Part shown: in pieces, positions 37,301-41,079 of the stretch | Numbering within the stretch: position 1 is the first letter of the stretch | Layout: each line of letters starts with the position of its first letter | Assembly: GCA_018267475.1 (NCBI GenBank) | Contig: JAFDYI010000019.1 | Location: forward strand, 1-53,158 | DNA from: Bacteroidota bacterium | Lineage (GTDB): Bacteria > Bacteroidota > Bacteroidia > B-17B0 > Aurantibacillaceae | Length of the DNA stretch: 53,158 nt | Reading direction: 5' to 3' | Position numbers and translations under genes: made by a program | The notes under the pieces: generated by a model | Told to the model about the DNA's origin: nothing | Seen by the model: only the letters and a program-made list of their open reading frames with translations | Database searches by the model: none

Positions 37301-40057
37301 TTAATGCTGCACAACTATTTTTTGTGTGTACGTACCTACTCGTACAAAATAAACTCCTTCCGGCCACAAAGAAACATCTATCTGAGCCGTATGATTTTTT
37401 AGTTGTATGCTTTGGTTCTTCAGCACTTCGTGCCCTAGTACATCGGTTATTTGTACCTCTGCATTTTCAGTTGATGCAAAACACATAAGCGTAAGCATAC
37501 CCGAACTCGGGTTGGGATACGCCAATAACAAAGCTCCGTTTGCTGCTATCTGCTCTATGCCGGTAGCGCACGAAATAGCTTGTACAGCGGGTCCGTTTAT
37601 AGAATCGCAAGTCAAACCTGCCCCATCAACCGCTTTAACAGAAAAATAATACATCTGTCCGGCGCTTAAACTGAGTCCGTTTTGTGTGGTTGAAGTAACA
37701 TTACCGATATTAGTCCACGATACTACATTGCTTGCTCCTGGTGTAGTGCCAATAGCATATTGATAGTAAGCCATTCCGGAATTTACATCGCTTGCTGTAC
37801 TCCAGTTGGCGCTAAGAGCCGTTGTATTAGAACAAACGGTGTTCGTAGCATTATTTACAGCCGTAAGGCCGGTAGGTGGCGTCCAATCAATGTTTACAGG
37901 CTGTGATACAAATGCGGATAAATTCCCCGAATTATCATTGCAAACCGAGTTGATGTGCGCCGCCGGTGTGGTAGGGTTAGGGTTTTGGTACTCTAAGTCA
38001 TACGCATTTCCACTTCCTACACTAATAGTAGTCGAGGCAGATCGCGAGCGATACACCCTAAACTGGTTGATTAAAGTTGTAGCATTTCCGGTTCTAAATG
38101 AAACATAAGCTCCGCTTGTATAGGGTGATGGATCTGTCCACGAACCAATGAGTACACTATTTTGATATACACGCATAACTCCGCTAATGCGATCATAAAC
38201 AACCACGTAGTCATAACTTTGTCCTACATTTATATTCATCGGACTGCTATATACCGGGCTTCCAAAAACATTATTTACTACTTTATAAATTTGCAGCTGC
38301 TTACTATCTAATCTAAACCATACAAAGTAGCTGTTGTTTCTATTAGAAGAATCGGGTTGGTCGCAAAAAAAGTGAAAACCTGCCCGGCGATTTGTTCCCG
38401 CTCCGGCAACACTCATAGAAAAGCGATACAGATATCTATTAGATAATGTTTGGGTGAGTGGCGCATATATGTTGGTATTTGCCTGGGTAGCATCGCTTTG
38501 ATACAAAGAACTGCTGCTAATACTCCAGGTACCTACTTTTTGCGTCCAATTTGGGTTAATGCTGGGGCCATTAAAATCATCGGCGTAAAAACCATGTGTA
38601 TAATTAGCTCCCCATTTAGTACCATCATAGTAAATAGCCTGATAATACCCCTTTTCTACGCCACTGCCTCCGGTATTATCAACATCCGTAAAGTTGGCTG
38701 TAAAGTTTTGTGTTTGCCAGGTGCCCGAAACGGTTACAGAGGTTGTAGGTGCGATGGTATCGCGTATTACATGTAGGTTGTCAATACCTATATCGTTCAA
38801 GCCTTTATCGGTTGCTATAAAACGCAACACACTGGTAGGCGATGTAGCATTGGTAGTAAAGGTTTGGGTGGTCCAACTGGGAACTTGCGTAGTAGTAATG
38901 GTATAAAGCGATACCGGAAAGGTAGCCCCACCATCGGTAGAGAGCAATACTTGTAATTGAAAGGGAGCCGGTGCCGATTCGTTGTGTATATAATCAAAGT
39001 TCACTGTTTTTGTGCCGGGTGCCATCAAGTTAATATACAAATCCATTGCGCCGGTAGAGCCTGCGGTAGCTGCATAGTTTCTGAAACGCGCGCTGTAATT
39101 TCCATTAGAAGCCGAGGGTGTGTACGAGCCGCTGGTTACGCTGGGCCAGTCGGCGCCGCTATAATCATTTCTGTGCCAATAGTTGTACCCACTGGGCGAA
39201 GTGCCTCCGATGCTGCTTTTCCAGTATTGGTCAGGCAGGCGACCGGCAGGATATCCGGCTGTGCAACTGTCGGCCATCCAACTTTCAAAAGAAGTAAAAT
39301 AAGGAACCGAAGCATAATACGTGTGGCACGAAGGAGGGGCGCCGCAACTCATTAAAGAAGTAAGATCGCTCATGGTTCCATGAAAATAATCTAAATCTAC
39401 ATTTCCGCTCCCGCTGATACCGGGCACGGTGCCCGTCCACGAGTATTGTTTAAACGAATAATTAGGATACCAAACGCCTAAGTAGGTAGAAGAAGGCGCC
39501 GCGGTAGGGTTTCCATCGGGGTCAGCCACCCAAAGTTTATATTGTGTAGCCAAACTGCTTCCTAAGCTGTTGGCAATAGATCCTGACGTATATATAATAG
39601 GGGTAATGCCTGTGGCTGCCTGCACGGTGCTGCACCAAGTCTGTATCCAAGTGGTTTGTGCTGCCCAAGATAGGGAGGTGCTTACCTCATAATCTAATAC
39701 AGGGGGCAATTGACAAGACACAATATAAGGCTGCGCCACACTTAGAAAAAAGTTAGCTTCGGCTGTAGCGCCGGCCGTAGTGGTATGCGTATCGGGGTGT
39801 GCAAAATGATAGCCTCCCATATACATACCCGCTGCTTCGCCGTTTGTGATGTTGCTGGTAAAATAACTATCGGTTACGGTTAATCCTTCTGTGGCTTTTG
39901 CCCAAGCAAACGTGTAACCGGCTCCTTTTACACTCGTCCAGTTGATAGAGCCCTGATAGCTGGAAACATCTAATCCCAAAATAGTTTGAGCTTTAATAGA
40001 ATAGACTACAAGGCTTAAAACAAAAACAAAAATTTTAATGCGTTGATTTATTTTCAT
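37301..40057 (-). CDS. Secreted GH25 lysozyme with C-terminal T9SS sorting domain
   Basis: 918 aa. Signal peptide to about residue 23. Residues 25-235 are a GH25 muramidase domain: D30 (LGLDVSSYQG), the D-x-E pair D122/E124 (PVLDYEVS), and VDLDYFHG at its end. The following regions read as beta-sandwich modules: a MAM/choice-of-anchor-like part at about 250-435 and a LamG-like part at about 500-680, then a fibronectin-like part. The last 75 residues (LLLAYPNPSSGMLTL, VQITDVLGHEV, PEGVYFVRV) are a T9SS type A sorting domain. The enzyme should cut peptidoglycan glycan strands outside the cell. Its start overlaps the end of the upstream 155-aa gene by 23 bp, so the two form an operon. Confidence 0.9.
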   Translation of the reverse strand: MKINQRIKIFVFVLSLVVYSIKAQTILGLDVSSYQGSINWTSVKGAGYTFAWAKATEGLTVTDSYFTSNITNGEAAGMYMGGYHFAHPDTHTTTAGATAEANFFLSVAQPYIVSCQLPPVLDYEVSTSLSWAAQTTWIQTWCSTVQAATGITPIIYTSGSIANSLGSSLATQYKLWVADPDGNPTAAPSSTYLGVWYPNYSFKQYSWTGTVPGISGSGNVDLDYFHGTMSDLTSLMSCGAPPSCHTYYASVPYFTSFESWMADSCTAGYPAGRLPDQYWKSSIGGTSPSGYNYWHRNDYSGADWPSVTSGSYTPSASNGNYSARFRNYAATAGSTGAMDLYINLMAPGTKTVNFDYIHNESAPAPFQLQVLLSTDGGATFPVSLYTITTTQVPSWTTQTFTTNATSPTSVLRFIATDKGLNDIGIDNLHVIRDTIAPTTSVTVSGTWQTQNFTANFTDVDNTGGSGVEKGYYQAIYYDGTKWGANYTHGFYADDFNGPSINPNWTQKVGTWSISSSSLYQSDATQANTNIYAPLTQTLSNRYLYRFSMSVAGAGTNRRAGFHFFCDQPDSSNRNNSYFVWFRLDSKQLQIYKVVNNVFGSPVYSSPMNINVGQSYDYVVVYDRISGVMRVYQNSVLIGSWTDPSPYTSGAYVSFRTGNATTLINQFRVYRSRSASTTISVGSGNAYDLEYQNPNPTTPAAHINSVCNDNSGNLSAFVSQPVNIDWTPPTGLTAVNNATNTVCSNTTALSANWSTASDVNSGMAYYQYAIGTTPGASNVVSWTNIGNVTSTTQNGLSLSAGQMYYFSVKAVDGAGLTCDSINGPAVQAISCATGIEQIAANGALLLAYPNPSSGMLTLMCFASTENAEVQITDVLGHEVLKNQSIQLKNHTAQIDVSLWPEGVYFVRVGTYTQKIVVQH

Positions 40058-40502
40058 GAGAAGAGGTATTGGATTTTTTAGATGCTTTTATTTTGGTTGA
40101 TTTTTTAGAAGCAGGCACGTGATTTATTTTTGATATGCAGTTCCACCCCTTGCCATTTACACTATATACAAAAGAAAATACCTTGTCTTTGTATTTTTTG
40201 TTTAACTCAAAACCTTCGTTTGTTTTTACCAAAAAGTCATTAAATTCTTTATTCACTTGAAAGGTGCTGAGCGAGGCATCGTTTTGATTAGCCAACAAAA
40301 CCAACTCGGTTTTCCCAACGGTAAGCGCTTGCGCTCCCAAAAATTTAGCCTGCACTTGAGTAACAATACCCGTTATTACTTTTTCCTGTGTTTTATTTTC
40401 TGAAAGAGTTTGAGGCTCTTGTGCTTTTTCTGTTTGGGCAATAATGACTGCGCTACTAAGGAACGTGCACGCTAAAAAAAAGGCATTTAGTTTTCGTTTC
40501 AT
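40035..40502 (-). CDS. Small exported protein, operon partner of the GH25 lysozyme
   Basis: 155 aa from ATG 40502. Signal peptide MKRKLNAFFLACTFLSSAVIIA. The mature part has a Thr/Gln/Glu-rich spacer, then a compact domain of about 85 residues (IVTQVQAKFLGAQALTVGKTEL... KVFSFVYSVNGKGWNCISKI) that reads like a small beta-barrel, then a Lys/Ser-rich tail. I do not recognise the family. Possible roles are binding the lysozyme's substrate, assisting it, or protecting the cell from it; these are guesses from position. The 29 residues that an in-frame start at 40589 would add are rejected because they cross the promoter. Confidence 0.7.
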   Translation of the reverse strand: MKRKLNAFFLACTFLSSAVIIAQTEKAQEPQTLSENKTQEKVITGIVTQVQAKFLGAQALTVGKTELVLLANQNDASLSTFQVNKEFNDFLVKTNEGFELNKKYKDKVFSFVYSVNGKGWNCISKINHVPASKKSTKIKASKKSNTSSHENKSTH

Positions 40503-40517
40503 GTTTTTATTTTTAGA

Positions 40518-40547
40518 CAAAGGTATTATTTTTATCGACAAAAACAA
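40518..40547 (-). promoter_or_regulatory. Promoter TTG - 19 bp - TACCTTTG for the lysozyme operon
   Basis: On the minus strand, TTG at 40547-40545 and TACCTTTG at 40525-40518 are 19 bp apart. The box ends 15 nt before the ATG at 40502. Confidence 0.72.
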
Positions 40548-40698: not shown

Positions 40699-41079
40699 AT
40701 GGCAAAAAAATCCGCAAAAAAAGCAGTAAAAAAAGCTGCGAAAAAAGCTGCTCCTAAAAAAGCAGTAAAGAAAGCTGCTCCTAAAAAAGCCGCAAAAAAA
40801 GCTGCTCCTAAAAAAGCAAAAACCAAACGCAAAGCAAGCCCTGCCTTGATGAAACCCTTCACTCCAAGTGCTGCTTTAGCAGAAATATGTGGAGGCAAAG
40901 CGGCTCCTCGTTCTGAGTTTGTAAAAAAATTGTGGGCTTACATCAAGTCGCACAAATTGCAAGACACAAAAAACAAACGTATGATCAATGCTGATGCAAA
41001 ATTGAAACCCGTGTTCAATGGCGCTAACCAAGTTTCTATGTTTGATATGTCTAAGCATTTATCAAAACACTTGAAATAG
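40699..41079 (+). CDS. SWIB/MDM2-domain protein with histone-H1-like Lys/Ala tail
   Basis: 126 aa. Residues 2-45 are almost wholly Lys, Ala and Pro with repeated AAPKKA and KKAAKK units, like the tails of eukaryotic H1 and bacterial H1-like proteins. Residues about 50-126 are a SWIB domain: LMKPFTPSAALAEICGG, RSEFVKKLWAYIKSHKLQD, KRMINADAKLKPVFN and the ending SMFDMSKHLSKHLK. SWIB proteins are known in Chlamydia and Bacteroidota; a DNA-binding, nucleoid role is inferred. It has its own promoter and a strong terminator. Confidence 0.92.
   Translation: MAKKSAKKAVKKAAKKAAPKKAVKKAAPKKAAKKAAPKKAKTKRKASPALMKPFTPSAALAEICGGKAAPRSEFVKKLWAYIKSHKLQDTKNKRMINADAKLKPVFNGANQVSMFDMSKHLSKHLK

What the first reader, a model, noticed from the sequence alone, without database searches (positions are those of the whole stretch)
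37301..40547. T9SS-secreted GH25 lysozyme in an operon with an unrecognised small exported protein
The lysozyme carries GH25 catalytic residues D30, D122 and E124, several binding modules and a T9SS sorting domain, so it is built to act outside the cell. Its gene overlaps by 23 bp a 155-aa exported protein with a compact beta-rich core and basic tail. A shared promoter drives both. This layout would fit an antibacterial or predation weapon with an accessory or protective partner, in the way effector-immunity pairs work, but it could also be for self wall turnover or host/food digestion.
Basis: partly seen in the sequence, partly recalled or inferred. Interest (0 to 1): 0.6.

Follow-up and report, generated by a model that had tools for sequence, protein, structure and literature searches.

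The report
Secreted lysozyme with conserved periplasmic partner
A Bacteroidota bacterium makes a secreted wall-cutting enzyme from a two-gene unit, and the small unnamed protein encoded just in front of the enzyme gene occurs in other bacteria only next to such enzymes, which suggests it controls or restrains the enzyme on its way out of the cell.

Summary
The gene at 37301-40057(-) encodes a 918-aa GH25 muramidase (D30, D122, E124 present) with binding modules and a T9SS type A sorting domain. The gene at 40035-40502(-) encodes a 155-aa exported protein and overlaps it by 23 bp. The small protein matches no Pfam, NCBIfam or PDB sequence family. It is not an orphan: homologs turned up in 9 more genomes across four family-level groups of the class. 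In all 10 loci where the neighbour can be read it lies directly upstream of a GH25 gene (spacing -23 to +20 bp); every complete GH25 has a T9SS tail. It was never found without one. AlphaFold2 gives an OB fold; a hairpin tip reading NGKGW(K/N)CI is invariant. Other T9SS GH25s have no partner, and none of the 20 copies with an extra N-terminal domain has one. The best reading is a dedicated periplasmic partner of the mature enzyme, most likely an inhibitor or escort that protects the producer's own wall during secretion, working like Bdellovibrio Bd3460. Linkage and fold are shown; binding and inhibition are inferred. The basic tail is peculiar to this genome, and a classic effector-immunity weapon is not demonstrated.

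The parts
40035..40502 (-). small exported protein (155 aa), first gene of the pair; founder of an unnamed OB-fold family
   Evidence: ORF; no Pfam/NCBIfam/PDB sequence family; homologs all next to GH25
40434..40502 (-). signal peptide of the small protein (residues 1-23; no lipobox Cys)
   Evidence: sequence; conserved as a signal-peptide-like segment ending in (A/G/S)Q or SE in the homologs
40116..40385 (-). conserved core of the small protein, OB fold
   Evidence: alignment of 10 homologs; AlphaFold2 model; OB-fold matches Z about 6-7
40134..40157 (-). NGKGWNCI motif on the hairpin between the last two strands, NGKGW(K/N)CI in all 10 full-length homologs
40038..40112 (-). Lys/Ser-rich basic tail, unique to this genome
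   Evidence: absent in all homologs
40035..40057 (-). 23-bp overlap of the two genes; other loci have ATGA 4-bp overlaps or gaps of 2-20 bp
37301..40057 (-). T9SS-exported GH25 muramidase, 918 aa
39989..40057 (-). lysozyme signal peptide; the GH25 domain begins directly at the mature N-terminus
   Evidence: sequence
39416..39970 (-). GH25 catalytic domain (D30, D122, E124)
38750..39340 (-). MAM-like region shared by 6 of the partnered lysozymes
   Evidence: weak Pfam MAM hits in homologs
38039..38572 (-). CBM66/ConA-like lectin fold, about 50% identical to the C-terminal part of T9SS Amidase_2+CUB proteins of the family
37616..37831 (-). fn3-like region (below the Pfam cut-off)
37307..37519 (-). 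T9SS type A C-terminal sorting domain
   Evidence: the T9SS translocon SprA is present in this genome
40518..40525 (-). TACCTTTG, possible Bacteroidota -7 element ahead of the small gene (weak)

Best explanation
A conserved two-gene module. The first gene makes a soluble periplasmic OB-fold protein and the second a T9SS-exported GH25 muramidase. The muramidase enters the periplasm through Sec and must pass the cell's own peptidoglycan before SprA moves it outside. The OB-fold protein, translated just ahead of it and without a T9SS signal of its own, stays in the periplasm and binds the mature N-terminal GH25 domain, probably with its invariant NGKGW(K/N)C hairpin. It holds the enzyme inactive (inhibitor or escort) until export, then stays behind. 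Shown: gene pairing, exclusive linkage, predicted fold, signal peptides, T9SS tail and translocon. Inferred: periplasmic residence, binding, inhibition, handover.
For: Ten of ten readable homolog loci in four family-level groups have the small gene directly upstream, same strand, at -23 to +20 bp; 0 of 29 other GH25 genes examined had any upstream ORF that close. No homolog without a GH25 neighbour in the whole-genome scans of f1, of class and phylum samples of about 395 genomes each, and of two further families. Two loci carry the small gene more than once or between tandem GH25 genes. The partner goes with a GH25 domain exposed at the mature N-terminus: 10 of 10 partnered lack an N-terminal extra domain, and none of 20 with that domain is partnered. 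The partner also stays when accessory modules change (MAM-like versus PKD), so GH25 is the only common target. OB fold with an invariant hairpin tip. Signal peptide but no T9SS tail. T9SS is encoded in this genome. [quoted passage not shown]
Against: No binding or activity data, and no complex could be modelled. Many T9SS GH25s lack the partner, including a whole clade with GH25 at the mature N-terminus (7 copies, some in genomes that also hold a partnered copy), so export of such an enzyme does not generally need it. Correlated divergence of the two proteins is weak (Mantel r 0.29, p 0.04). The GH25 residues that would differ in the partnered copies were not identified. The fold matches are generic OB-fold matches (best Foldseek E 7e-3) and say nothing of function.
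Confidence: 0.45

Rival explanations
1. The small protein is a dedicated periplasmic folding or secretion chaperone that helps the GH25 enzyme fold or reach the T9SS translocon, without inhibiting it.
For: Same linkage, tight upstream coupling and likely periplasmic location as the inhibitor reading. The exclusion between partner and N-terminal domain fits a domain that can replace it in stabilising the enzyme's N-terminus.
Against: Closely related GH25 domains are encoded with T9SS tails at other loci without it. No known chaperone family matches.
Confidence: 0.22
2. The small protein is a positive cofactor: a glycan- or peptidoglycan-binding OB-fold protein that targets or boosts the enzyme.
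For: OB folds often bind saccharides (general knowledge); the N-terminal domains of the unpartnered copies may be binding modules that take the same role (inference).
Against: It has no T9SS signal to leave the cell. Partnered lysozymes already carry binding modules.
Confidence: 0.15
3. A true effector-immunity pair for killing other bacteria: the lysozyme is a weapon and the small protein is immunity against kin.
For: Secreted muramidase beside a small exported partner; T9SS-associated toxin-immunity pairs have been proposed in Bacteroidetes (PMC7073777).
Against: Sited among housekeeping genes (uppS- and bamA-like genes on one side, purL on the other); no polymorphic toxin cluster or array of orphan immunity genes; one GH25 copy in this genome. 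A released GH25 would not readily reach the peptidoglycan of Gram-negative kin (general knowledge).
Confidence: 0.1
4. The two genes are only co-transcribed and the small protein acts elsewhere in the envelope.
For: There is no direct interaction evidence; correlated divergence is weak.
Against: Exclusive linkage in unrelated neighbourhoods and with several GH25 subclades.
Confidence: 0.08

Closest known systems
Bdellovibrio Bd3459/Bd3460 self-protection pair (PMC4686830)
   Same: Peptidoglycan hydrolase that must cross the producer's periplasm, co-transcribed with a small exported periplasmic protein; the binding face there involves the enzyme's signal-peptide cleavage site.
   Different: Bd3460 is an ankyrin-repeat protein, its targets are DD-endopeptidases and its gene is downstream; here an OB fold, a GH25 muramidase and an upstream gene. 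Inhibition is not tested here.
T4 Spackle - gp5 lysozyme (PMC7677548)
   Same: Small periplasmic protein with a dedicated lysozyme target.
   Different: Phage superinfection exclusion, another lysozyme family, not a pair encoded with its own secreted enzyme.
Bacterial lysozyme inhibitors MliC/PliC, PliI, PliG, Ivy (PMC6033465, PMC3458809)
   Same: Small exported bacterial proteins that block lysozymes; several are beta-rich (general knowledge).
   Different: They act on c-, g- or i-type animal lysozymes; no match to a Pfam or NCBIfam model was seen, and the open literature searched gave no report of a GH25 inhibitor.
T9SS-secreted GH25 muramidases without partner (same genus and class)
   Same: GH25 domain and T9SS tail.
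   Different: Genes without the small upstream gene; many carry an extra N-terminal domain of about 140 aa.
TANFOR polymorphic toxins of Bacteroidetes (PMC7073777)
   Same: Proposed T9SS-linked interbacterial toxins with adjacent immunity genes.
   Different: No TANFOR domain found here, no polymorphic C-terminus; the partner gene is upstream and its product exported.

Membership tests
GH25 muramidase | GH25 domain above the curated cut-off | tested here: met
   125.9 bits against cut-off 27
GH25 muramidase | catalytic Asp and DxE motif | tested here: met
   D30, D122, E124
GH25 muramidase | muramidase activity | not testable with these tools
   needs an enzyme assay
T9SS type A substrate | signal peptide and Por_Secre_tail domain | tested here: met
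T9SS type A substrate | T9SS translocon encoded in the genome | tested here: met
   SprA_N, E 3e-147
OB-fold protein (small protein) | predicted OB-type beta barrel | tested here: met
   AlphaFold2 core pLDDT about 85-95; nearly all top matches are OB folds, Z 6-7. Prediction only, and a shared fold is not family membership
MliC/PliC, PliI, PliG, Ivy lysozyme inhibitors | match to a family model | tested here: inconclusive
   no Pfam/NCBIfam match in any of 10 members; distant folds not excluded
periplasmic self-protection protein (Bd3460-like in role) | dedicated linkage to an exported wall hydrolase | tested here: met
   10 of 10 readable loci
periplasmic self-protection protein (Bd3460-like in role) | binds and inhibits the hydrolase | not testable with these tools
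   no complex prediction or assay available
Shiga toxin B subunit family (NCBIfam hit in two members) | match of the mature protein to the model | tested here: not met
   hit (1.5e-4) vanished when signal peptides were removed
polymorphic toxin / effector-immunity system | toxin cluster, variable toxin domain, immunity gene array | tested here: not met
   single pair, conserved catalytic domain, housekeeping surroundings

The most novel reading that the evidence does not exclude
A previously unrecognised family of periplasmic OB-fold proteins that specifically inhibit or escort GH25 muramidases during type IX secretion, answering how Bacteroidota export wall-cutting enzymes past their own wall, with an N-terminal domain doing the same job in related lysozymes.
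Probability: 0.35. Interest if true: 0.72.

Novelty: new variant of a known kind. Interest (0 to 1): 0.52.

Why it matters
If the small protein restrains the muramidase in the periplasm, it would be a protein inhibitor of GH25 lysozymes (none was found in the literature searched) and would show how a type IX substrate that can cut the producer's own wall is kept safe on its way out. The pair also gives a clean test: two soluble partners, many natural pairs, and sister enzymes that do without.

Tried and rejected
Shiga toxin B-subunit similarity: an artefact of the signal peptide, gone in mature sequences. Indole-3-glycerol phosphate synthase, neuropilin and other PDB sequence hits: chance level. 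Weak hits in G018, G021, G040, G274, G311, G448 and G655: low scores; of those examined none is a related pair, and the G448, G655 and G311 hits match mainly the signal peptide (G040 was not examined). Phage, plasmid and viral-contig relatives: none convincing. phrog_9501 (unknown function) matches several members weakly at the same place (best 3e-4): unexplained, not pursued. A disulfide between the conserved Cys of the small protein and a GH25 Cys special to partnered enzymes: no Cys column separates the two groups. One ancestral partnered GH25 clade: not supported, partnered copies fall in several places of the GH25 tree. My first idea that every GH25 with a free mature N-terminus is partnered was wrong: the SYEG clade is not. 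Only single proteins can be folded with the tool, so no complex was modelled.

Full report
WHAT IS THERE. On the minus strand two genes overlap by 23 bp: a 155-aa exported protein (40035-40502) and a 918-aa protein (37301-40057). The larger has a GH25 domain (residues 30-214, 3e-36) and a T9SS type A sorting domain (847-917), and its nearest solved relative is cellosyl 1jfx (1.3e-26). D30, D122 and E124 are present and are kept in all relatives aligned. The genome (2.76 Mb, 99% complete) encodes the T9SS translocon SprA and a single GH25 gene.

ACCESSORY MODULES. Residues 240-436 are a MAM-like region found in six partnered lysozymes. Residues 496-673 are predicted as a CBM66/ConA-like lectin fold (AlphaFold2 pLDDT 85-95 over most of it; Z 17.3 over 164 residues, Foldseek 4e-10). 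Residues 432 onward are about 50% identical to the C-terminal part of T9SS proteins of about 1,020 aa that carry Amidase_2 and CUB domains in the same family. The related lysozyme in G062 is only 526 aa and lacks this part, and this genome has only one copy of the lectin-like region. So the window enzyme looks like a chimera of a GH25 lysozyme and an amidase-type C-terminal half.

THE SMALL PROTEIN IS A FAMILY. It has no Pfam, NCBIfam or PDB sequence match. Searches found homologs in two genus-mates and in seven genomes of three other family-level groups of the class (395 genomes sampled; one of the nine hits there, G274, is rejected and one is the window itself). A phylum sample added none, and neither did searches of two of those families. 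The conserved protein is about 111-117 aa: a signal peptide and an OB-fold core of about 90 aa, with NGKGW(K/N)CI invariant in all ten full-length members.

LINKAGE. In all ten loci where the neighbour can be read, the small gene lies directly upstream of a GH25 gene on the same strand, at -23, -4, -4, +12, +11, +20, -4, +2, -4 and -4 bp. One further copy (G065) is cut by a contig end. The partner enzymes have T9SS tails wherever they are complete. G230 carries two such pairs in tandem, and G313 has GH25 - small gene - GH25. The flanking genes differ between families. Of 29 other GH25 genes examined, none has an upstream ORF within 20 bp. No homolog without a GH25 neighbour was found; the weaker hits that were examined are chance or signal-peptide matches.

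WHICH GH25s HAVE THE PARTNER. In a tree of 40 GH25 domains the partnered copies fall in several places. All 10 partnered copies begin with the GH25 domain at the mature N-terminus; none of the 20 copies with an extra N-terminal domain of about 140 aa is partnered. The chance of that split with independent rows is C(20,10)/C(40,10), about 2e-4, though the rows are related. A clade of seven copies (SYEG motif) has a free N-terminus and no partner, so the rule runs one way only. The partner also stays when the accessory modules change from MAM-like to PKD. The common target is therefore the GH25 domain, perhaps at its N-terminus (inference).

FOLD. AlphaFold2 on ten homologs gives seven strands, with core pLDDT about 85-95. 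Solved-structure matches are nearly all OB folds at Z 6-7: RecO, PriB, CusF, TIMP-1, and engineered OBodies bound to hen lysozyme. Foldseek E is no better than 7e-3. This supports the fold, not a function; the OBody and TIMP matches show only that OB folds can be inhibitors.

MECHANISM. Type 9 substrates cross the outer membrane through SprA (PMC12635249), after Sec export to the periplasm (general knowledge), so an active muramidase would meet the cell's own wall first. The small protein has a signal peptide, no lipobox and no T9SS tail, so it should be periplasmic (inference), and it is encoded just ahead of the enzyme. [quoted passage not shown] I therefore favour a periplasmic inhibitor or escort (0.45) over a non-inhibiting chaperone (0.22), a positive cofactor (0.15), a kin-immunity weapon (0.10) or no functional link (0.08). 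Against it, many T9SS GH25s manage without the partner, correlated divergence is weak (Mantel r 0.29, p 0.04), and binding was not testable here.

PROMOTER. A TACCTTTG element lies about 16 bp before the small ORF, but such elements are no commoner in the window than chance. The gene overlap makes co-transcription likely; a shared promoter is not shown.

VERDICT. The small protein is a narrowly distributed family without a name in the libraries searched, tied to T9SS GH25 muramidases.

Noticed in passing
L036, L037, L039-L043, L045; L116, L119, L122, L125, L127-L129, L131-L134: A second kind of T9SS GH25 lysozyme carries an unnamed N-terminal domain of about 140 aa (C..GGC/GYC ... QYP..TFSTTSS.W..VSAYMN.GN.TLF.V) before GH25 and never has the small partner gene; it may do the same job.
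   Followed up: partly
L117, L118, L120, L121, L123, L126, L130: A clade of T9SS GH25 lysozymes of about 600-620 aa (GVDVSSYEG motif) with GH25 at the mature N-terminus and no partner gene, in genomes that sometimes also hold a partnered copy.
   Followed up: partly
window 37301-38760; L008-L035: The C-terminal half of the window lysozyme is about 50% identical to that of T9SS Amidase_2+CUB proteins present in most genomes of the family; the window genome has this region only in the lysozyme, which suggests domain swapping.
   Followed up: partly
L043:4829-5305(-) and L044:4787-5128(-): Two other T9SS GH25 genes are preceded, at about 120-135 bp, by unrelated small exported proteins (one of 158 aa, one of 113 aa rich in Ala, Lys and Asp).
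   Followed up: no
small-protein homologs (L069, L070, L071, L072, L074), residues about 11-76 of the mature proteins: Several members match the uncharacterised phage family phrog_9501 weakly but at the same place (best 3e-4).
   Followed up: no
window 40699-41079(+): Lys/Ala-rich histone-like N-terminus joined to what looks like a SWIB-type domain, divergent from the small gene.
   Followed up: no
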